In this document: in pieces, positions 796-10,506 of the stretch
Position numbering within the stretch: position 1 is the first letter of the stretch
Layout of the letters: the number at the start of each line of letters is the position of its first letter
Assembly (NCBI RefSeq): GCF_900095795.1
Contig: NZ_LT608328.1
Span: forward strand, 2,473,001-2,537,000
Origin: Petrimonas mucosa
GTDB lineage: Bacteria; Bacteroidota; Bacteroidia; Bacteroidales; Dysgonomonadaceae
Direction: 5' to 3'
DNA length: 64,000 nt
The notes under the pieces: model-generated
Databases searched by the model: none
What the model was told of the DNA's origin: nothing
What the model saw: only the letters and a program-made list of their open reading frames with translations
Position numbers and translations under genes: made by a program

Positions 796-1470
796 CTATA
801 CGAATTGTTTTAAAAACTTCAGTGCATGTTCTCTGTCAAGAATTTCATGTATTTTTTGGTTTTCATAGCTACGTAAACAACGATAGCAGGAAGGAGAACA
901 TTTACAAGTATCCAGTAAATTTATTGCTCTCTTTATTACTGCTTTTAATATTTCTCCATCTTCTGTTACAAGACGTCTTGAATGTCCTGCACCACCCGGA
1001 ACAGCATCGTATATTATAATCTTATGTTCCATTTTCCCATTTGTTTTCTTATAAGTTAAGCATGCCTTAATATCTCGTCTTTCAATGCTGAACTCATGCG
1101 CAAAAGAATTAAGTAGAGCATGCATTACCGACAACATTGTTGAATAGTCTGAAGTATCACATTCAAAGGATATTTTTGCCACATCTGTTTTAAATTCATG
1201 ATGCAAGCTATATCTTATGAGTGAAGTATTACTACATTTGCCTTTTCCAAAAGGATTATTATGACTCTTATTATTCTTTTCTATTCGAGCAACACCTGGT
1301 CTGTAGTCTTCATATTCTGATAATTTACTTGCTTCGTCGCTTGCGATTGAATATCCACATTTTGGGCATACGTAAAAAAAGTCAGTAGACTTAACCACGA
1401 GAGAATCGTTCGCAGTGGATTCAACCTCTAATTTGATATTTTCAAATTCATATTCATATTTACTTTCCAT
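796..1470 (-). pseudogene. DUF1998 C-terminal fragment of the IS110-split helicase
   Basis: This 224-residue open frame carries the hallmarks of the DUF1998 domain: an early CPKCG zinc knuckle near residue 35, AVPGGAGH near residue 155, and a late cysteine cluster CKCSPSCYRC followed by LRSYENQ and an H..LDR stretch. DUF1998 normally sits at the C-terminus of large DEAD/DEAH helicases such as MrfA or DruE. Here it has no helicase of its own. The helicase at 3051-7187 ends without a DUF1998, in the same orientation, with only an IS110 element between them. A stop codon lies directly before the ATG at 1470, at the IS boundary. The simplest reading is that both were one gene of about 1600 codons. 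The ATG could still be used to make a free DUF1998 polypeptide, but I see no clear promoter for it. Confidence 0.85.
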
Positions 1471-1520
1471 TTAAAATCCCAATAAAATTGGACAATTCAT
1501 TTTAATTAACTTTTAAATTT

Positions 1521-1529
1521 TATCTTTGC
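1521..1529 (+). promoter_or_regulatory. Candidate promoter -7 box for the IS110 non-coding RNA
   Basis: TATCTTTGC matches the Bacteroidota -7 consensus TAnnTTTGC exactly. It points rightwards, and the predicted start (about 1534) falls in the first stem of the structured RNA. There is no TTG at the usual -33 distance (the nearest is 30 bp away), so support rests on the -7 box and its position. Confidence 0.45.
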
Positions 1530-1531
1530 AT

Positions 1532-1855
1532 CAGGGTGTTAAGAGGAAACAGGCTCTGCCGGGGGGCAACCTGTCAGCAATAAGCACCCTGACGGTATGC
1601 AGTAATGCTACTTTAGGAGGTGGATATTCTGCCTCCTTTTTCAGTATTACTGACACTGTCCATATGGCTAAGAAAACCCGATCCTACATCCTACGGTAAA
1701 CAATCTTTCCACAGCAGACTACCCGGCCTTGCGGCGGGAGCTGCAAATTCCTGTATCAGTTTACGATAGGCGGGGGTCACATACTAATTTAAGCAGACTT
1801 CAAAGCTGCAATAATATGACAGTGTTTCCCCCGTGGAAAAATTGCTTACACTGTA
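1532..1855 (+). ncRNA. Candidate bridge/seek RNA of the IS110 element
   Basis: The non-coding end of the element folds into successive hairpins. Hairpin 1 (1532-1591) has a 7-bp outer stem (CAGGGTG/CACCCTG), a symmetric 10/10-nt internal loop (1539-1548 and 1575-1584) and an inner stem ACAGG/CCTGT capped by TGCC/GGCA. Hairpin 2 (1600-1652) has a 7-bp outer stem (CAGTAAT/ATTACTG), a symmetric 8/8-nt internal loop (1607-1614 and 1638-1645) and an inner stem AGGAGGT/GCCTCCT. Further stems pair GTAAAC with GTTTAC (about 1695-1763) around CCCG/CGGG, and ACAGTGT 1819-1825 with ACACTGT 1848-1854. IS110-family recombinases are guided by an RNA with two internal-loop hairpins, one matching target and one matching donor DNA. 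The plus strand is preferred because of the -7 box and a G-U pair in hairpin 2, but the opposite strand is not excluded. Confidence 0.6.
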
Positions 1856-1865
1856 GGATTGTATG

Positions 1866-2951
1866 TTAATTGACAACGCACGGCACATATTCCTGTCCAT
1901 GTTTGAGCACGAAAAATATCCTGTTCACCAGTTTACGGGCTACCTTGACTATGGCCTTCTGGGCATTCATCCGTTTACGGTATCCCTCATAGGCCAATGT
2001 CATTGCCGGATCTTTCCTTATGGCTATCCATGCAGCCTCGATTATGTAACAGCGCAACATCGCGTGCTTGCGAACCGTGATGTTGCCGTCGCCCTGACTT
2101 TCCCCGCTGGAGTGGCACATGGGAATCAGTCCGATGTAGGAAGCCAGTGCGTCGGCGCTGGAAAACCGGTGGATATCGTCTATCTCGACCGCCAACGACA
2201 TGGCGGTGGTTATCCCTATTCCCGGAACCGATGCAAGCAGGCGTATCGGCTCCTTGAGTACTTCACTGCGGGATAATGCGCGCAATATCCGCGTTTGTTC
2301 GAGAAGCATGCCGCGCAGGCGTACAAACTGCTCTATGTGTATGTTCAGTGCCTGCCGCCCATATTCGGTGGAAAGCGACACTTCGCGCAGCCATGCCAAA
2401 AACCGCTTTGACCAGTTCCCCACCGAATGACGTGTAAATTCTTCCGGGATGTCTATCCCGTGAAATCGCAGGAACGACTTTATCCGGTTCTTTTCCCTCG
2501 TGGTGTCTTTTACGATCCTGTTTCTCAACCTTATCAAAGAACGCATTTCCAGGGTGGCGACATCCGGCACGTAAATGCCTTTTAATGTTCCCGACCGTAA
2601 TTCCCTGGCCAGTTTCCCGCAATCAACCGCGTCGGTCTTGCGTAATTTCTCCTTGCTCATGGTCGGCACATCAGCCGGATTGACAACGATGTTGTTGATC
2701 CCTAATCCTGTCAGATTCTCGTGTATCCAGAACCCGCAGAATCCCGCTTCGTAAACCGAATGATAATCCGCTCCCGGATAATGGGTTGTCAAAAACTTGT
2801 GCAGCGATTCCGGACTCGGATCCTGCCTGAACTTCTTCAGAACAGAATGTTGGGATAACACTGCCACCGACCAACTTTTCAAATGGGCGTCGATTCCTAC
2901 GTAAATATTTTGCCCTTTGAAATCTAATTTGTTACTTTGTCCTCTGTTCAT
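1866..2951 (-). CDS. IS110-family transposase (DEDD recombinase)
   Basis: This 361-residue protein has the two domains of IS110 recombinases. The N-terminal RuvC-like DEDD domain shows D21 in GIDAH, E68 in YEAG, and D107/D110 in KTDAVD. The C-terminal transposase_20 domain shows the helix-hairpin-helix SVPGIG near 242-246, an IGLIP stretch, and the HSSGE region near 280-284 holding the presumed catalytic serine. Length is normal for the family and the frame is intact, so the element may still be active. These enzymes excise as circles and insert using an RNA guide, without the DDE chemistry of most transposases. The gene runs in the same direction as the helicase it interrupts. Confidence 0.95.
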   Translation of the reverse strand: MNRGQSNKLDFKGQNIYVGIDAHLKSWSVAVLSQHSVLKKFRQDPSPESLHKFLTTHYPGADYHSVYEAGFCGFWIHENLTGLGINNIVVNPADVPTMSKEKLRKTDAVDCGKLARELRSGTLKGIYVPDVATLEMRSLIRLRNRIVKDTTREKNRIKSFLRFHGIDIPEEFTRHSVGNWSKRFLAWLREVSLSTEYGRQALNIHIEQFVRLRGMLLEQTRILRALSRSEVLKEPIRLLASVPGIGITTAMSLAVEIDDIHRFSSADALASYIGLIPMCHSSGESQGDGNITVRKHAMLRCYIIEAAWIAIRKDPAMTLAYEGYRKRMNAQKAIVKVARKLVNRIFFVLKHGQEYVPCVVN

Positions 2952-3050
2952 AAGCTATATTGTTTAAGTTAAGATTGTTATCTCTCAAAAACAAAGTTAA
3001 CTAAAATGATATAGCTTTTTTACTGGACTACCTATCCGTCTTTTACAATT

Positions 3051-6000
3051 TCAAACATAGGAACTAATTGGATAAGCCGTTTCGTCACCAATATAGATGG
3101 CATCTGTTCTATATTTACGTTCTTGTGAACGAAGCGGGACGTTTTTTATTTCCTCTTCTGCGATAAAACCTGCCCTTGGCTCAATACTTTTATAGAAATC
3201 TCTATTTTTTAGTATATGGCCACAAATGGCACACGGTATTCCATCTGTACCTATTGGCATTTTCGAATAATTTATTTCATCACAGATTGAGCATTTTGAA
3301 AAATATCCAGTCTCAAAGTCGCTCATTTCGCTTTTGTTTACAATAGGTTTTCTAATGTAACGACTTGTATATAAGCCACCGTCGGCAACCACTTCAGATG
3401 ACGGTGCATATTCGGCAATGGCAACTGATAAATCGCGACTTAAGTTTAATGATTTGAAACTTTTTGCAGCAATATTCTGAGTTAATTCTACAGAATCAAC
3501 AGGAAAACCATATTTTGGAAGAATATTACCTCGAACCAGAAAATCAATCAAATCGTTTTTTTGATACCTTTCTAATTTCCGACTAAATATAGTAGCAGTA
3601 TCTACATCTCTTGCTCGAATTGCCTTTTCGTATTCCCTTTTTAAATACTCGACATTCTGTTCAAACTCCTTCATGATTTTTGAAAATATTCCTTGCTCAC
3701 CAATAAATTCTTCTAACCATTCATAACTATTGATGTATTTGTTTTTCAGTTGTTTATCTGTGATTGAAATAGAATTTCTTAATAAATCGGATAATTCAAC
3801 TGGTTCAGATTTAAGCCAATCAAGAAAACCCAGATACCCCTTTTCGTTAATAAATGGTTTCGCATTATTAGCGGAATACAAATCTGGATTGATTTTTAAG
3901 TATAAACTTAAAGCCACGGCGTATATGTGACGTTTTAATATTTTCTCATTATCTAAATTGAACTTTGGTGGATAAATCACTCCATTTATCATTTCTATTG
4001 GACTATCGAAGAAAGTAAAATCATGAGAACTTAACCTTGCAAATGTCAATGCAAAAGCGGCTGCATCTATTCTTCTACCTGCACGTCCGACTCTTTGTGC
4101 ATAATTCGATGCGAGAGGTGGAATATTTCGCAAAAATACTGTTTCCAATTCTCCGACATCAACCCCCATTTCAAACGTCGTAGAACAAGAAAGAGCGTTA
4201 ATCTCTTTTCGAATAAATTGTTGCTGATAATCTAACGCATCCTTTTTTGCAAGTTGAGCAGTATGTTCCTTAACAAATAAAGGCGATACTTTTTCACTTT
4301 TATATAACATTGCATAATAATTGTCGTTGCAAAATTCTTCGGAGTTTAATCTTTCCAGTATTCCCTCACAACCAATTTGAATACAATTATTGCCTATATT
4401 AAATTGAGTTACTTTACCGCACTTTTTACATTTCCAAAGAACTGCATTATTCCCTAAATTGACTTTGAAATAATTTGCGGGAATAAAATAACCTTTACCA
4501 TCATTTGTTTGAAGTTTGAATTTGTTATTGTCTGATACCAAATAATCCCAGTAGTTACCTAAAAACTCAACTGCTTTATCACCATCTAATTGGAGAATTT
4601 TTGTTGTGAGCCATAATTTATTCGAACGATAGTATTTTTTTTCTCCGCTTTTCAATATTCTTGGAGTAGGCATGAAACCTTGAGAATTAAAAACAGAATC
4701 ATCCTTGTACTTAGTTATAAATTTCTGATATGGTGTATAATACAAGTATTCCCTGTCATTAGGATTTATATCTGTTATTTTGTCTGTAATAATTGCAGCC
4801 GATCTTACAATTTCAAACGCGAGGAAATTTAGGAAATTCTTTGCATCCTGTTTGGAAAGATTAAAATTTTTGACAACCACCTGAATAATATCATCGCTAT
4901 TTCCAAGATATTCAAAAGAGATTTTACCCAATGAAACGAGTGATGTATCTCGATTGCAATTATAAAGCTCATTAAGGACAGCAACCCATGCATTACGCCG
5001 ATTTTCGGTAATTGACGATTCTATATGGTCGGAATTGCTTTTACGAAACAAATTCAATCCTGAATAATAATTGTCAAGTACGCTTACAAAATCACTAATG
5101 TTCAGACCTTCTTTATAATTGCTTTCTTCTTGTGTAACTACATTCCAAATTCCTCGTCGACGTAAAAATTCTTTATAAGATTCACTTAAATAGCAAGCAA
5201 ATTTTGCAGCTCCCTGACGGCTGTCTGAGAAAATTAGAAATTGACTCCCTGTTCTTGATTTAATTTTTTTCTTTTCGACTTTTTGTAAAAATGGATTAGT
5301 AGTTGATTGTTCTTCAGCGTTTTCTTCAACATCAAATTTATATTCTGGTATTTGTTCGTATAAAGAGGTTGCAATAACTGCTGTGGCTGCATCATACCCC
5401 AAATTAAATCGTCTCAAATGTCCACCACAATTTAAACAATTATCTTTGGGCGATTTAAAAATCTTTATTTGTTGAATGTTTCCACAAGTACACCAACTAT
5501 TATGAGCCTCGTCCTCTTCCACTATTGCACCGCAGTTTTTGCATAAATAAAAAACTTTATCTTCATTTTTCTTCTTCGCTTTTATCTTGATTTCATTTTT
5601 ACCGTTTTCTTCCTCTTCTTCAAATAAATTTTGGTTGTATTGCACTTGATAATAACTCAGTTCATCCAAATTACTTGCTATAAGCAGTTTACCATTTGTT
5701 ACCTTTCCAAGAATAGCAATTTCTCCACAATCTTCACAAACAGCAATTTCAAACATTTTTGCTGTTTTTTCATATGCAATAGGAAAATGGTCTCTTCTTA
5801 TTAGCGACAAACTATTTTTGTAGTCAAGTGCTAAATAACAGCCATCTAATGCTTTGAGAAAATAATGATATCGGATATCAATGAGCGGTTTCCCATTTTT
5901 TCTTGCTTTCGCACACAACGCAATAAATCTTACTGCTTCCTGGCTTGTTATTTCAAGAAGTTCGGCAAAATCACTGAGTTTTAATAAACTGCCCTTGCTT

Positions 6001-7187
6001 CTCATTTTAGCATAAAAACTCGAAGAAGAAATGATATCATATAATACTTCTGCCTCTCCTTCCTCTCTTTCTTTAGAGTATTTGAAATCAAGGTTGTACT
6101 TATCTAAAATATCATTAAAGAAATTTTCCTCATTTGCTAAGTCAGTAAATAATTGAATCGGATATTGATAAATTTTAGATGACTTTTGTGAGTTATCACG
6201 ATAGGCTGTTATTATCTCATCAGTGGTATAATTACAACCTGTTAATCGTTCCGCAAATTCAACGACCCTCTCATTACTTGATGGGCTACCATCTCCTAAT
6301 GTTGCTGATGTTAGAATAAATTGAGGCTTTCTTTTACCGGTTATCCTGCCTTTTAATCTTCCCATTAGAAATGCAGTTTCAATTCCAGTCGCCCCTGCAT
6401 AAACGTGCGCCTCATCCAATACTACGAATTTGAAATTGGAATTACTGAATATTGAATCATCGCCTGGTCGAAAAAGCATGTGTTCTAACATGGCATAGTT
6501 TGTAAACAAAATATGGGGTGGGTGTTCCTTCATCCTTTCACGGGACACCTCCTCATTTGGCAACCTCTTTCTCAATTCCGGATATTTTTCGTTGGCATAC
6601 ATTGCTTCATAAAGCTTAATTGCATCCATTTCTCTATTTTCCGTACCACCATTATAAACCCCAAAACGAATATCAGGGTATGCCATCAGAATTTCACGCA
6701 GTCCTTTAATCTGGTCGTTTGCCAATGCATTCATCGGGTAAATGAAAATTGCCCTGACTCCATCATTCAGTTGCCCTTTTTCTTTTTCTCGGAGTAATTC
6801 GTTGATAACGGGAATCAAAAAACAATTTGTTTTACCACTCCCAGTACCTGTTGATACTACTAAATTTTTTCCAGAGACAATTTTCTCAACAGCCTTTTCC
6901 TGATGTAAATACAAAGGTCGGGAAATGGGAAGTTTTGGTGGGTATTTTTTTTTGCTTTCCAAATCTCTAAAAAGTGGTGACAACGTTCCATTATCAATCA
7001 ATTCTTCAATTGATTTCCCAGATTTAAAAGAATCTTTTATTTCAACGAATGGTCCGTTTGAAACAGTTTTATCTAACTCTTCAACTAATTTTTTCTGCAG
7101 ATTTTGATTGCGAAAATGAAAGGTAGTACTGATATAACCAATGTACTCTTTCTTAATTTCATCTGCTGCTTTTGCCGGATTAAACAT
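3051..7187 (-). pseudogene. Large DEAD/DEAH helicase, DruE-like, truncated by IS110
   Basis: The reading frame is open for 1378 residues. It carries superfamily 2 motifs: Walker A TGTGSGKT at 113-120, DEAH at 258-261, TSATLG near 293, and QRVGRAGRR in the C-terminal RecA lobe. Several CxxC zinc knuckles sit between and after the lobes (CEDCG, CKNCG, CLNCGG, CKKCG, CSICD). The order helicase, cysteine-rich insert, DUF1998 and the large size fit DruE of Druantia and related giant helicases. The frame stops a few residues after the IS110 junction (SSYV-stop), and the missing DUF1998 is at 796-1470. The start overlaps the end of the upstream 1108-residue gene by 8 bp, indicating translational coupling. 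A truncated product could be made, but loss of DUF1998 probably abolishes function. DrmA/DrmB of DISARM is an alternative, less likely because helicase and DUF1998 seem to have been one chain. Confidence 0.8.
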
Positions 7188-10100
7188 CTTCTTCTTCCTT
7201 AAATTTGTAAAGTATTATTTCATCATAACGATTGTCCTGCTTTTGAATGTTGCAAATACCCTTACGCAATTTATCACAGAATAAGTTACCAATATTAATT
7301 TCTCTTCCTTCCAAACCAGCTGCCAGCCATAATGTGTTATTGTCTCTTAATTCAATTCTTACAGGATTAATAATATCATAAGTCCCTTTTTCATTTATCA
7401 TGGTGTTTAACACTCTTGTATTACCATTTTGGTCAATTACATGCAATCGTCCAATATAATAGATAGTTTCAGAATCTTCTAAATACTGCAATTTGTCAAT
7501 AAAGTAATTTGGAATAAAGGGAATCCATTCGGATTTTTTGCTGTTAAAACAATTTGCGCTTAACAACCTTATCTTTTTGTACTTAAATCGAAGTTTGTCA
7601 GGTGAGCCAATCAGCAATTCCCCCTCAAAGATTAGTTGATAATTTTCTGCTTTTGAGAAGATATTTTTGTCTTTAATTTTTACCTGAATTTTACATATAT
7701 CTTCATGCAGATTCCTAATTTCACAGGTCTTACAATCGATTTTAGATCGAAAATTATTATCAGGTGATTTAATGATAAGAAAAAATTCATTGTTTTTATC
7801 TCCGATAAAAGTATCTTCCACATTCCAAAGCACTTTTCCATCAATGTATGACAATGGATTTGCAATAAAATGCTCTTTTGTGGAAACAGTAAAAATTTCA
7901 AAAATCTCTTTCCCATAAACAATACAAACAGAAATATCTGTTATGCCCTCATTGGCATAAATTGCCCTTCCGATTTCAAATTTTCCATTTTGATTTTTGA
8001 TAATTTCAAATGATTCTCCATTTACCTTGCCCAATATTGTAATGTCATCATTTTCATTGGGATTATCAATTTCTAATATATCCCCATTTGCTAAAAAATC
8101 TTTATACCATAATTTTCTGTTAATGGGTTCATTGTGCCAATCATTGTTGTTTATTCTCCATCTTAGATATGCAATTTTTATCACTAGCATGCCATCATTG
8201 ATTGGACATTTTATCTCATTATCTTGTTTGCTCCACGTTAATACTATATCTTCATCACCATTGTATACAGTTAGCTTTCGCTCAATATCACCGTAATAAA
8301 AAGGATGATTAAACTGTATTTTAAGATTCGGCATAACAATTAATGTTTCTCTTAAGATTGTTAATTCTTTTTCGTAGGAATATAAAATGATTTCGGTTGG
8401 ATTATTTTCAGGAATCAAACCCATTACTTTTAAACCAAAATGATAGCAACCGCTTTCAATTCTTTCAAAGCCAAGTTCGTGCAATTTATGAGCTTTATCA
8501 TCAATTCTCAATTCTAATGCTTTCAAATTGGTATTTTCTGGAATCAACAATTTAACACCACCAGAATAGACCATACAAGAAATATCATCAAAGAACCATT
8601 CTACATTTTGTACCTCTCCAATCAAACAAGGAGTCTTACCTATGCTTGCTGTTTTTGTCTTATCTACGAAAAAAACTTGTTTTATTTCACCCGATAAACT
8701 TTCACCTGCTTTAGGATATATATTATATAAATTAGTTCCATATGTTGTCAATTCGTTTGGTACACTTTTTAACGCATCAATGTCCTTGGAATATACGAAA
8801 TAATTATTCGGCTTATTTATTTGACTTAAAACTTCTTTTTCTCCCTCAAATAAAATAAACTCCCTATGTAATGATGTCGCTTTGTTTCTTTCTGAATCAA
8901 AAATTATCTTATGATTTTCTTTAATTTCAACTCTCAGATTAATTGCATCAGAATATTTCAACAAATCATTCAATTCCAATTCAATTTGTTTTGTCGCAAC
9001 AACTAATTCGCCACGTTTTGTTTTAATTTCTTCAGAACGAATCTGTTCTCCATTCACAAAAACCTTAAGCGACACAATGCTGTTGTCATCATCCAGTCTG
9101 ATTGAAGGAATGTAGATAAAAACAGAACTATCGTCTCTTATATATTTCGCAACAATATCTCCTTTTGAAACAGTTGGAACTCTCCTTTTCCGGTTTGTAT
9201 CACCAGATACTTTCTCAGATTCAGATTTATTTTTCCACCATTCTACGATGTAATGTTTTAATCTTGTGTCTTCGTTAATCGGCTCTTTATAGAACAATTT
9301 ATTGATATGAAAAAGCGTATCTTTTATAAACTCAACAAAATCAATGAATAAATCCTCATTCAGAGCAAAAGACCGTAAACCAATTTTAATAGAATATACA
9401 CTTGAGCCGATAGTAACTTTTTTGTCTTCACGATACCCATGACCTAAAAAATTTGCGATTTCTGAGGCAAATCTTTCACATTGCCATTCGTCATCATTAG
9501 TAAAACCAAAATCCAAATCATTTTTGAAAATATTATAACATAGGTCATAAAATGAAAAAATACTATTCTTCGGAGCAAATGAATGCATCATCAGGGTTGA
9601 ATAGTACTTTTTGCCTGTCAAAACAATAGGAATTAAGTGTTTTCTTCCCAACTGCGAGATAACATCTGTAAAAGCTTGATATAACTTTTGGTTGATATAA
9701 TCCTCATTTATTAGATGTTTGGATATATAATCCCAAAAACGACTGTTTTCTTCGGTGTCGTCTTTATTATCAAAATCCTTCCATCGTTTTGCAATTTCAA
9801 CAAGAGTGGCAAATATTAATTTATGGTAATTCTCTTCAAACACGTTACCATAAGAAAGAAGAGAACTACATAAAAGACCAACATTTTCAAGCAGTGCTGA
9901 ATACTCATCTTCAGTAAAATCATAGTTGCCTAATAATTTATTCTCTGCGAAAATTCTGTCTATTTTTTGAAGCAATTCGGATATGTCATTTTTTTGCACA
10001 TCTTTGCATGGTATTCTACGCTTTTGGGGAATTGTCCATAACTGGTCATCTTCAGCAATTTTTTCATTTGAAATAATATGAGGATTTATTTCAACTTCAA

Positions 10101-10506
10101 TATTTTCAGTACCATTATTGCTTTCAGGTTCATTAAGTAAAGTGTTAATTGTGACACTATTATCATATTCTATTTGATCATTTACATCAATTTGTGTTTT
10201 CTCATTTATATTTTCTTCTTTCACAAATGGTGTTTGTCCCGTTTCTGTTCTTGATTTATTATTTCTTCCACAATCGTTTATGTCTTCTTGAATATTTGAG
10301 TTAGTAAAATTGCTAATTTCAGGATTTTTAATCTCAATTGAAGTAACATCAAAAGTGTCTCTCTTACCTTTAGATTTGTGAAGATTTCTTTTTCGTATTA
10401 ATCGAACAATTAAAAATATAATAGTCGCACTAAATGCGATTAAACTTACCCAAATAGATGACGGATAAGTTTGTGAAAATTTAATTATTTCATTAACGTA
10501 TTCCAT
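7180..10506 (-). CDS. Membrane-anchored 1108-residue protein, DruH-like by context
   Basis: I do not recognise a named domain. One transmembrane helix lies near residues 18-38 and is followed by a basic KRNLHKSK stretch, so the bulk is probably cytoplasmic. Residues of about 50-150 are acidic and Asn-rich, likely a flexible linker. A helical region follows (about 160-430), and the rest (about 450-1100) is dominated by short alternating hydrophobic stretches typical of beta-sandwich repeats. There is no ATPase, nuclease or methylase motif. It overlaps the giant helicase gene downstream by 8 bp. In type III Druantia a large protein without recognised domains (DruH) pairs with a DruE helicase, and size and gene order fit that here. 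This assignment is an inference from context. The gene is AT-rich compared with the SNF2 gene upstream. Confidence 0.55.
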   Translation of the reverse strand: MEYVNEIIKFSQTYPSSIWVSLIAFSATIIFLIVRLIRKRNLHKSKGKRDTFDVTSIEIKNPEISNFTNSNIQEDINDCGRNNKSRTETGQTPFVKEENINEKTQIDVNDQIEYDNSVTINTLLNEPESNNGTENIEVEINPHIISNEKIAEDDQLWTIPQKRRIPCKDVQKNDISELLQKIDRIFAENKLLGNYDFTEDEYSALLENVGLLCSSLLSYGNVFEENYHKLIFATLVEIAKRWKDFDNKDDTEENSRFWDYISKHLINEDYINQKLYQAFTDVISQLGRKHLIPIVLTGKKYYSTLMMHSFAPKNSIFSFYDLCYNIFKNDLDFGFTNDDEWQCERFASEIANFLGHGYREDKKVTIGSSVYSIKIGLRSFALNEDLFIDFVEFIKDTLFHINKLFYKEPINEDTRLKHYIVEWWKNKSESEKVSGDTNRKRRVPTVSKGDIVAKYIRDDSSVFIYIPSIRLDDDNSIVSLKVFVNGEQIRSEEIKTKRGELVVATKQIELELNDLLKYSDAINLRVEIKENHKIIFDSERNKATSLHREFILFEGEKEVLSQINKPNNYFVYSKDIDALKSVPNELTTYGTNLYNIYPKAGESLSGEIKQVFFVDKTKTASIGKTPCLIGEVQNVEWFFDDISCMVYSGGVKLLIPENTNLKALELRIDDKAHKLHELGFERIESGCYHFGLKVMGLIPENNPTEIILYSYEKELTILRETLIVMPNLKIQFNHPFYYGDIERKLTVYNGDEDIVLTWSKQDNEIKCPINDGMLVIKIAYLRWRINNNDWHNEPINRKLWYKDFLANGDILEIDNPNENDDITILGKVNGESFEIIKNQNGKFEIGRAIYANEGITDISVCIVYGKEIFEIFTVSTKEHFIANPLSYIDGKVLWNVEDTFIGDKNNEFFLIIKSPDNNFRSKIDCKTCEIRNLHEDICKIQVKIKDKNIFSKAENYQLIFEGELLIGSPDKLRFKYKKIRLLSANCFNSKKSEWIPFIPNYFIDKLQYLEDSETIYYIGRLHVIDQNGNTRVLNTMINEKGTYDIINPVRIELRDNNTLWLAAGLEGREINIGNLFCDKLRKGICNIQKQDNRYDEIILYKFKEEEDV

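What the first reader, a model, noticed from the sequence alone, without database searches (positions are those of the whole stretch)
1532..1855. Candidate bridge RNA with two symmetric guide-like loops
The non-coding end of the IS110 element forms two hairpins, each with a stem, an equal-sided internal loop (10/10 and 8/8 nt) and an inner stem. This is the geometry of IS110 target- and donor-binding loops. Additional stems follow. It is visible by eye in the sequence and gives a defined guide RNA for a new element.
Basis: partly seen in the sequence, partly recalled or inferred. Interest (0 to 1): 0.75.

Follow-up and report, generated by a model that had tools for sequence, protein, structure and literature searches.

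The report
Two opposing RNAs in one IS110
The end of this jumping gene does appear to encode the guide RNA that picks its landing site, but on the opposite strand from the two hairpins that were noticed; those hairpins belong to a second structured RNA that unrelated kinds of jumping genes in the same group of bacteria also carry.

Summary
The two hairpins are real (10/10 and 8/8 loops; hairpin A has compensatory changes in 14 of 17 pairs), but they are not the guide loops. The 3' non-coding end of this IS110-family element holds two convergent RNA candidates. (1) The bridge/seek RNA lies at ~1684-1862 on the minus strand, sense with the transposase. Its target arms (1810-1819, 1784-1792) match flanks of the element's insertions and change with the flanks in relatives (0 of 20,000 permutations for either arm). 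Its donor arms match the element's ends. The arm order is that reported for IS1111-type seekRNAs. (2) Hairpins A and B belong to a plus-strand RNA (~1529-1679) behind a TAnnTTTG promoter-like site. Its loops are nearly invariant and do not track targets. It also lies in elements with MULE/Mutator-like or rve transposases and in tnp-less derivatives; hairpin A occurs in two Microviridae. Rfam 15 has no match. Function unknown; a trans-acting, element-borne sRNA is the leading guess.

The parts
1463..3065 (-). IS110-family (IS1111-like) insertion sequence including the core dinucleotide at both ends (AG in tnp orientation: 3064-3065 and 1463-1464); the right-hand copy of the core may come from the target
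   Evidence: flanks of 4 complete identical copies and 2 partial ones diverge here
1866..2951 (-). DEDD transposase/recombinase, 361 aa
   Evidence: Pfam PF01548 8.4e-16, PF02371 4e-23
1684..1862 (-). bridge/seek RNA candidate, sense with and 3' of tnp; ends approximate
   Evidence: A4, 15 elements: 96.4% of cells paired vs 89.1% shuffled, 9 of 30 pairs with double changes; G-T 44 vs A-C 3 cells on this strand
1810..1819 (-). right target guide arm TCATATTATT, complementary to the top strand right of the insertion point
   Evidence: permutation test, 15 guides and 23 sites, 0/20,000
1793..1809 (-). apical hairpin of the target loop, GCAG...CTGC
1784..1792 (-). left target guide arm TTAAATTAG, same as the left target plus core AG
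   Evidence: permutation test, 11 guides and 20 sites, 0/20,000
1746..1752 (-). donor guide arm AGGAATT, can pair with core+left end AGTTCCT (one G-T wobble)
   Evidence: comparison by eye; no permutation test
1705..1711 (-). donor guide arm TGGAAAG, same as right end + core; 14 of 15 elements in A4 have it
   Evidence: comparison by eye; no permutation test
1470..1479 (+). right subterminal inverted repeat TTTAAAATCC
   Evidence: 7 of 10 with the left copy at 3046-3055; 9 of 10 in relative L014 (read)
3046..3055 (-). left subterminal inverted repeat TTTGAAATTG
1521..1528 (+). TATCTTTG, resembles the Bacteroidota -7 promoter element (consensus recalled) of the second RNA
   Evidence: TAnnTTTG just upstream in 37 of 81 distinct loci, 2.1 expected from shuffled letters, 0 on the other strand (loci not independent)
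1529..1679 (+). second structured RNA ('ncA'), antisense to and convergent with tnp/bridge RNA; ends approximate
   Evidence: 14 of 17 pairs compensatory; controls
   Evidence: similar folds in many other contexts
1664..1679 (+). conserved 3' motif ATGGCTAAGAAAACCC of ncA (missing from some loci)
   Evidence: A1

Best explanation
The 3' non-coding end of this IS110-family element is a convergent two-RNA region. The RNA read with the transposase (minus strand, ~1862 to ~1684) is the bridge/seek RNA: a long closing stem and two similar hairpins with GCAG/CTGC apical stems; the first carries a target-binding pair of arms, the second a donor-binding pair, and with the recombinase it would join the circular element to target sites of roughly the form AAATTAG followed within a few bases by ATATGA (shown: structure, strand, co-variation of target arms and flanks; inferred: donor pairing, binding and catalysis). 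The two hairpins noticed belong to a separate RNA on the plus strand (promoter-like site, hairpin A, hairpin B, conserved 3' motif) that elements with unrelated transposases also carry; it most likely acts as an element-borne small RNA on a host factor rather than as a guide (inferred).
For: Own insertions and relatives: right arm vs right flank mean longest match 6.12 with own against 3.97 with other elements' flanks, left arm 5.26 against 3.41, 0 of 20,000 permutations each; two negative controls p 0.52 and 0.25. Examples: L017 AATAGTTATG and GTGGAG, L019 AGATCGTCA, L107 AACATTATG, L109 CATTATGA. Strand: G-T 44 vs A-C 3 for the bridge RNA on the tnp strand, G-T 34 vs A-C 9 for ncA on the plus strand; TAnnTTTG 37 of 81 vs 2.1 expected. 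ncA outside IS110: rve and MULE/Mutator-like transposases beside it, tnp-less derivatives that keep it, hairpin A in two Microviridae. IS110 relatives without an ncA hit keep the bridge RNA (L016, L019, L020, L029).
Against: No transcript was seen for either RNA. Four guides match their right flank poorly (L011 3, L042 3, L016 4, L027 4 bases), and L016's arm matches its right flank better unreversed (8 bases) than as complement. Arms were taken with text patterns, so elements that did not fit were left out; related guides are not independent. Hairpin B holds a terminator-like stem, so the conserved 3' motif may not be in the main ncA transcript. 'Further pair types' of the bridge RNA and hairpin B did not exceed shuffles (273/500, 317/500). 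The weaker promoter pattern TAnnTTT is also found by chance often (55 of 81, 19.7 expected, 12 on the other strand).
Confidence: 0.87

Rival explanations
1. One reading: hairpins A and B are the target- and donor-binding loops of the bridge RNA, read on the plus strand.
For: Real hairpins with symmetric internal loops and strong covariation of hairpin A; position at the IS end; a second copy of the end in L012 joins the first inside a CTACTTT stretch of the hairpin B 5' loop.
Against: Hairpin A loops nearly invariant between elements with different targets (A2); no significant match to flanks in 16 comparisons after correction; the same RNA in elements with DDE-type transposases, hairpin A in phages; no hit in eight IS110 relatives with 48-70% similar tnp; another RNA fits the guide role.
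Confidence: 0.03
2. ncA is a cis-acting boundary module (promoter plus terminator) that blocks or dampens transcription through the element end, rather than a trans-acting RNA.
For: Promoter-like site followed by a terminator-like stem with T-run; lies between the element end and the tnp 3' end in IS110 and MULE-like elements, convergent with tnp.
Against: Hairpin A internal-loop sequence is conserved far beyond what a terminator needs; beside several rve transposases it runs in the same direction as tnp; kept in tnp-less derivatives.
Confidence: 0.25
3. The conservation is of a protein: hairpin A encodes a peptide (EKETGSAxEQPxSD) in some elements.
For: Open in that frame in the IS481-like tnp of L008 and L220/L221 and at the end of a Microviridae hypothetical CDS (frame read by hand from the sequence and the CDS ends).
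Against: Compensatory changes in 14 of 17 pairs; a stop codon precedes this frame in the window (read); in the MULE-like elements only the RNA 3' end overlaps tnp, antisense.
Confidence: 0.03
4. ncA is an antisense regulator specific to the bridge RNA or transposase of its element.
For: ncA and bridge RNA converge and abut near 1679-1684 (parts).
Against: Beside several rve transposases ncA is sense with tnp, and in tnp-less derivatives there is no tnp to be antisense to.
Confidence: 0.12

Closest known systems
IS1111-type seekRNA (ISEc11, ISKpn4, ISPa11; Siddiquee et al. 2024, PMC11187229, abstract and passages seen)
   Same: DEDD transposase; long non-coding region downstream of tnp; RNA in tnp sense; complement of the top strand comes first, match to the top strand second
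   Different: subterminal repeats short and imperfect in this copy; terminal extensions 8 and 5 outside the core instead of 7 and 3; A/T-rich targets; a second, opposing RNA in the same region
IS621 bridge RNA (Durrant et al. 2024, PMC11208160, passages seen)
   Same: two loops, one for target and one for donor, with the core dinucleotide included
   Different: IS621 RNA lies in the left end upstream of tnp with the left guide named first; here the RNA is downstream and the complement of the right side comes first
Rfam 15 families
   Same: none found
   Different: no family reaches its gathering score in the window apart from two tRNAs elsewhere, or in 13 loci chosen for hairpin A matches apart from tRNA and rRNA; an E<=10 search of the IS gave only matches far below gathering scores
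Weinberg et al. 2010 motifs listed without an Rfam number (GUCCY-hairpin, Transposase-resistance, Bacteroides-2; PMC2864571, table passages seen)
   Same: Bacteroidetes or transposase in name or range
   Different: structures are in a supplement not held; identity cannot be tested

Membership tests
IS110 family | DEDD and Transposase_20 domains | tested here: met
   PF01548 and PF02371 above cut-off
IS1111 group with seekRNA | long non-coding region downstream of tnp | tested here: met
   about 400 nt 3' of tnp, about 110 nt 5' (read)
IS1111 group with seekRNA | RNA with target-matching arms, top-strand complement first | tested here: met
IS1111 group with seekRNA | subterminal inverted repeats, usually 11-13 bp, near perfect | tested here: inconclusive
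   7 of 10 in this element, 9 of 10 in L014 (read)
IS1111 group with seekRNA | terminal extensions 7 and 3 bp | tested here: not met
   8 and 5 bp outside the core (read); depends on how the core is counted
IS1111 group with seekRNA | RNA co-purifies with transposase and directs insertion | not testable with these tools
   needs bench work
bridge RNA as hairpins A and B (reader) | loops complementary to target and donor, changing with them | tested here: not met
   target side: loops near-invariant; donor side not tested statistically
known Rfam family (ncA) | score above gathering threshold | tested here: not met

The most novel reading that the evidence does not exclude
ncA is a portable, transposon-borne structured RNA that unrelated mobile elements of Bacteroidota (DEDD IS110, DDE rve and Mutator-type IS, tnp-less derivatives, and in part Microviridae) have each acquired, because it acts on a conserved host factor to the benefit of the element, whatever its transposition chemistry.
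Probability: 0.45. Interest if true: 0.8.

Novelty: new variant of a known kind. Interest (0 to 1): 0.62.

Why it matters
The minus-strand RNA gives a natural series of re-targeted IS1111-type guide RNAs in Bacteroidota, with guide arms and insertion sites readable from genomes; 9 of 24 sites lie just before an ATG that opens a frame of 40 or more codons. The plus-strand RNA would be a rare case of one structured RNA shared by mobile elements with unrelated transposases, which raises a testable question: what does it do for them? It also warns that bridge RNAs cannot be called from symmetric hairpin loops alone: flank matching is needed.

Tried and rejected
Folding energy alone: both strands fold significantly, so it cannot choose the strand.

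The lowest value (p 0.007, hairpin B 5' side against the left flank) does not survive correction for 16 tests; the next are 0.053 and 0.058.

Rfam at gathering and at E<=10: no family. Plasmid collection by distant blastn: no match. Paper searches (listings only, apart from passages of four papers) showed no description of the second RNA; this is not proof of absence, and many papers are not held.

Covariance-model search of 395 phylum genomes gave 11 with a hit, own genome included, but it scored only 13 candidates per genome, so it is a lower bound; the pattern search (36 of 393 genomes of the order, own genome included; reversed pattern 0 in the genomes listed) is preferred.

Rows dropped: L019, L020 and L029 were skipped because they match only the bridge-RNA part; elements whose ends or loops did not fit the text patterns were left out of the guide test; A4 was built from 15 chosen elements. 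Counting slip: the script files L223 under its opposite-strand rve ORF although one search also shows a sense one overlapping the RNA.

Full report
The observation. The interval folds better than 100 of 100 shuffles on both strands. Hairpin A is a conserved RNA structure: in 27 sequences 14 of 17 pairs show changes on both sides with the pair kept, 93.4% of cells pair against 74.1% in shuffles and at most 48.0% when slid. Hairpin B is supported more weakly among 13 IS110 relatives (95.5% against 92.6% shuffled and at most 69.0% slid, 5 of 19 pairs with double changes) and by a similar fold in many unrelated contexts.

The element. The transposase at 1866-2951 (minus) is a DEDD IS110-family protein. 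The genome holds four complete identical copies, one with an internal deletion and a 5' stump. Comparing flanks places the ends at 3064-3065 and 1463-1464 with core AG in tnp orientation; the base after A at the right end varies between copies and relatives (G, A, T or C). The host family appears to be Dysgonomonadaceae: a hit in same-family genome G078 has the same coordinates as a Dysgonomonadaceae record (inference). The window copy splits a helicase gene whose two parts match Druantia DruE models; the flanks read in one frame across AG.

Where the guide is. In IS110 relatives without a hit to the hairpin A model (L016, L019, L020, L029) the stretch next to tnp is still conserved. Read with tnp, it folds into a long closing stem with two hairpins that share GCAG/CTGC-type apical stems (A4, 15 elements: 96.4% of cells paired, 89.1% shuffled, at most 53.2% slid, 9 of 30 pairs with double changes; further pair types no more than in shuffles, 273/500). 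G-T cells outnumber A-C cells 44 to 3 on this strand, which marks it as the likely transcribed one.

Target arms. The arm 5' of the first apical stem is the complement of the target to the right of the insertion, and the 3' arm repeats the target to the left plus AG. For 15 distinct guides and 23 sites the mean longest common stretch of right arm and own right flank is 6.12 bases against 3.97 for other elements' flanks; for 11 guides and 20 sites the left values are 5.26 and 3.41; none of 20,000 permutations reached either. Two controls (left arm against right flank; right arm unreversed) gave p 0.52 and 0.25. Poor matches: L011 and L042 (3 bases), L016 and L027 (4); L016's arm even matches its flank by 8 bases unreversed. 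Good ones: L019 (9), the G049-type guide (mean 8.33 over 3 sites), L122 (8), L017/L018 (mean 7.5). Donor arms (by eye, not tested by permutation): TGGAAAG, present in 14 of 15 elements of A4, repeats the right end plus core, and AGGAATT (AGGAACT in 8 of 15) can pair with core plus left end, with one G-T wobble in the window (read). The order (top-strand complement first) is what Siddiquee et al. report for IS1111-type seekRNAs (PMC11187229, passages), as is the downstream position; Durrant et al. also place IS1111 bridge RNAs in the right end (PMC11208160, passages).

Sites. Of 24 right flanks, 18 have ATG within the first 14 bases and 9 of the 24 have one that opens a frame of 40 or more codons, against 20.9% and 6.6% at random positions of some of the same loci (sites of one element are not independent). 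So this guide series tends to place the element a few bases before start codons; the window copy is an exception inside a gene.

The second RNA. TAnnTTTG, the Bacteroidota -7 promoter element (recalled), stands just upstream in 37 of 81 distinct loci against 2.1 expected from shuffled letters and 0 on the reverse strand; the looser TAnnTTT gives 55, 19.7 and 12 (many loci are related). In hairpin A, G-T cells outnumber A-C cells 34 to 9 on the plus strand. After hairpin A come hairpin B, with a terminator-like inner stem and T-run, and in most loci with enough sequence a conserved motif like ATGGCTAAGAAAACC; it is missing for example from L180, L184 and the two Microviridae. The internal loops of hairpin A are almost invariant, and none of 16 tests linked stretches holding the loops to flanks after correction.

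Its distribution. A 30-base pattern from hairpin A, up to one mismatch, is found in 36 of 393 genomes of the order, own genome included; the reversed pattern in none listed. Of 63 hits in fetched loci (most IS110 relatives found earlier were not in this set) 28 have a transposase ORF nearby by the script: MULE-like 11 (all opposite strand), rve 13 (9 same strand, 4 opposite; with L223 counted by its overlapping sense ORF 10 and 3), IS110 4 (all opposite); 35 have none, some because the contig ends there. Of ten representatives the five rve-cluster proteins have rve-type domains above cut-off; of five MULE-cluster proteins three pass Transposase_mut, L199 is just below the cut-off and L195 shows only helix-turn-helix-type hits. 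The labels IS481 and IS3 are recalled. Comparisons show that the RNA lies inside the mobile units: L195 holds two copies of a unit of about 1.29 kb with RNA and tnp (99.9%), L220 and L221 share 1.36 kb (99.7%), and L196 and L091 from different genomes share 1.2 kb (90.6%); tnp-less derivatives keep the RNA (L197/L198, 387 aligned columns, 99.0%; L170 against L182). Two Microviridae carry hairpin A at the end of a hypothetical gene. Eight IS110 loci had no hit (L015, L016, L019, L020, L022, L023, L025, L029), nor had seven more distant ones (L032-L037, L057) (L015 is cut by its contig end).

What it does is open. It is not a guide by the tests above. A boundary or read-through module explains promoter and terminator but not the conserved loops or the sense orientation beside several rve transposases. 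Antisense control of tnp or bridge RNA fits IS110 and MULE-like elements but not the sense cases or tnp-less derivatives. A trans-acting RNA on a host factor fits the spread over unrelated elements best, without direct evidence.

Verdict. There is a bridge/seek RNA candidate here, of the IS1111 arrangement, new as a member; the finding's hairpins are a different RNA, without a match in Rfam 15 and not seen in the listings of the paper searches made, shared by unrelated mobile elements. I cannot exclude that it equals a 2010 motif listed without an Rfam number (PMC2864571, table passages).

Noticed in passing
window 796-1470 and 3051-7187 (-): The IS110 copy splits a gene whose two parts match Druantia DruE models (best E 3.1e-27 and 1.5e-143); the neighbouring 1108-aa protein (7180-10506) has no Pfam or PADLOC match.
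   Followed up: partly
L012 2851-3064: A second, partial copy of the element's right end with hairpin A joins the first inside the hairpin B 5' loop sequence CTACTTT, as if the element had inserted into its own non-coding end.
   Followed up: no
L010: An element with a 100% identical transposase sits in a contig filed as a Clostridiales MAG; recent transfer or a misbinned contig.
   Followed up: no
L197, L198 (genome G123): Elements of about 385 bp, 99.0% identical, keep the second RNA and both ends of a MULE-type IS (L091) without its transposase; the hairpin pattern occurs eight times in that genome.
   Followed up: partly
L167 2972-3037, L168 2980-3045: Hairpin A occurs at the 3' end of a hypothetical gene in two Microviridae, followed by a terminator-like hairpin.
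   Followed up: partly
right flanks of IS110 copies: 9 of 24 insertions have, 5-8 bases after the element's GGAA end, an ATG that opens a frame of 40 or more codons, against 6.6% at random positions.
   Followed up: partly
window 1664-1679 (+): The conserved 3' motif reads ATG GCT AAG AAA ACC in many loci, like a start codon, but early stops or lost ATGs in others argue against a peptide.
   Followed up: partly
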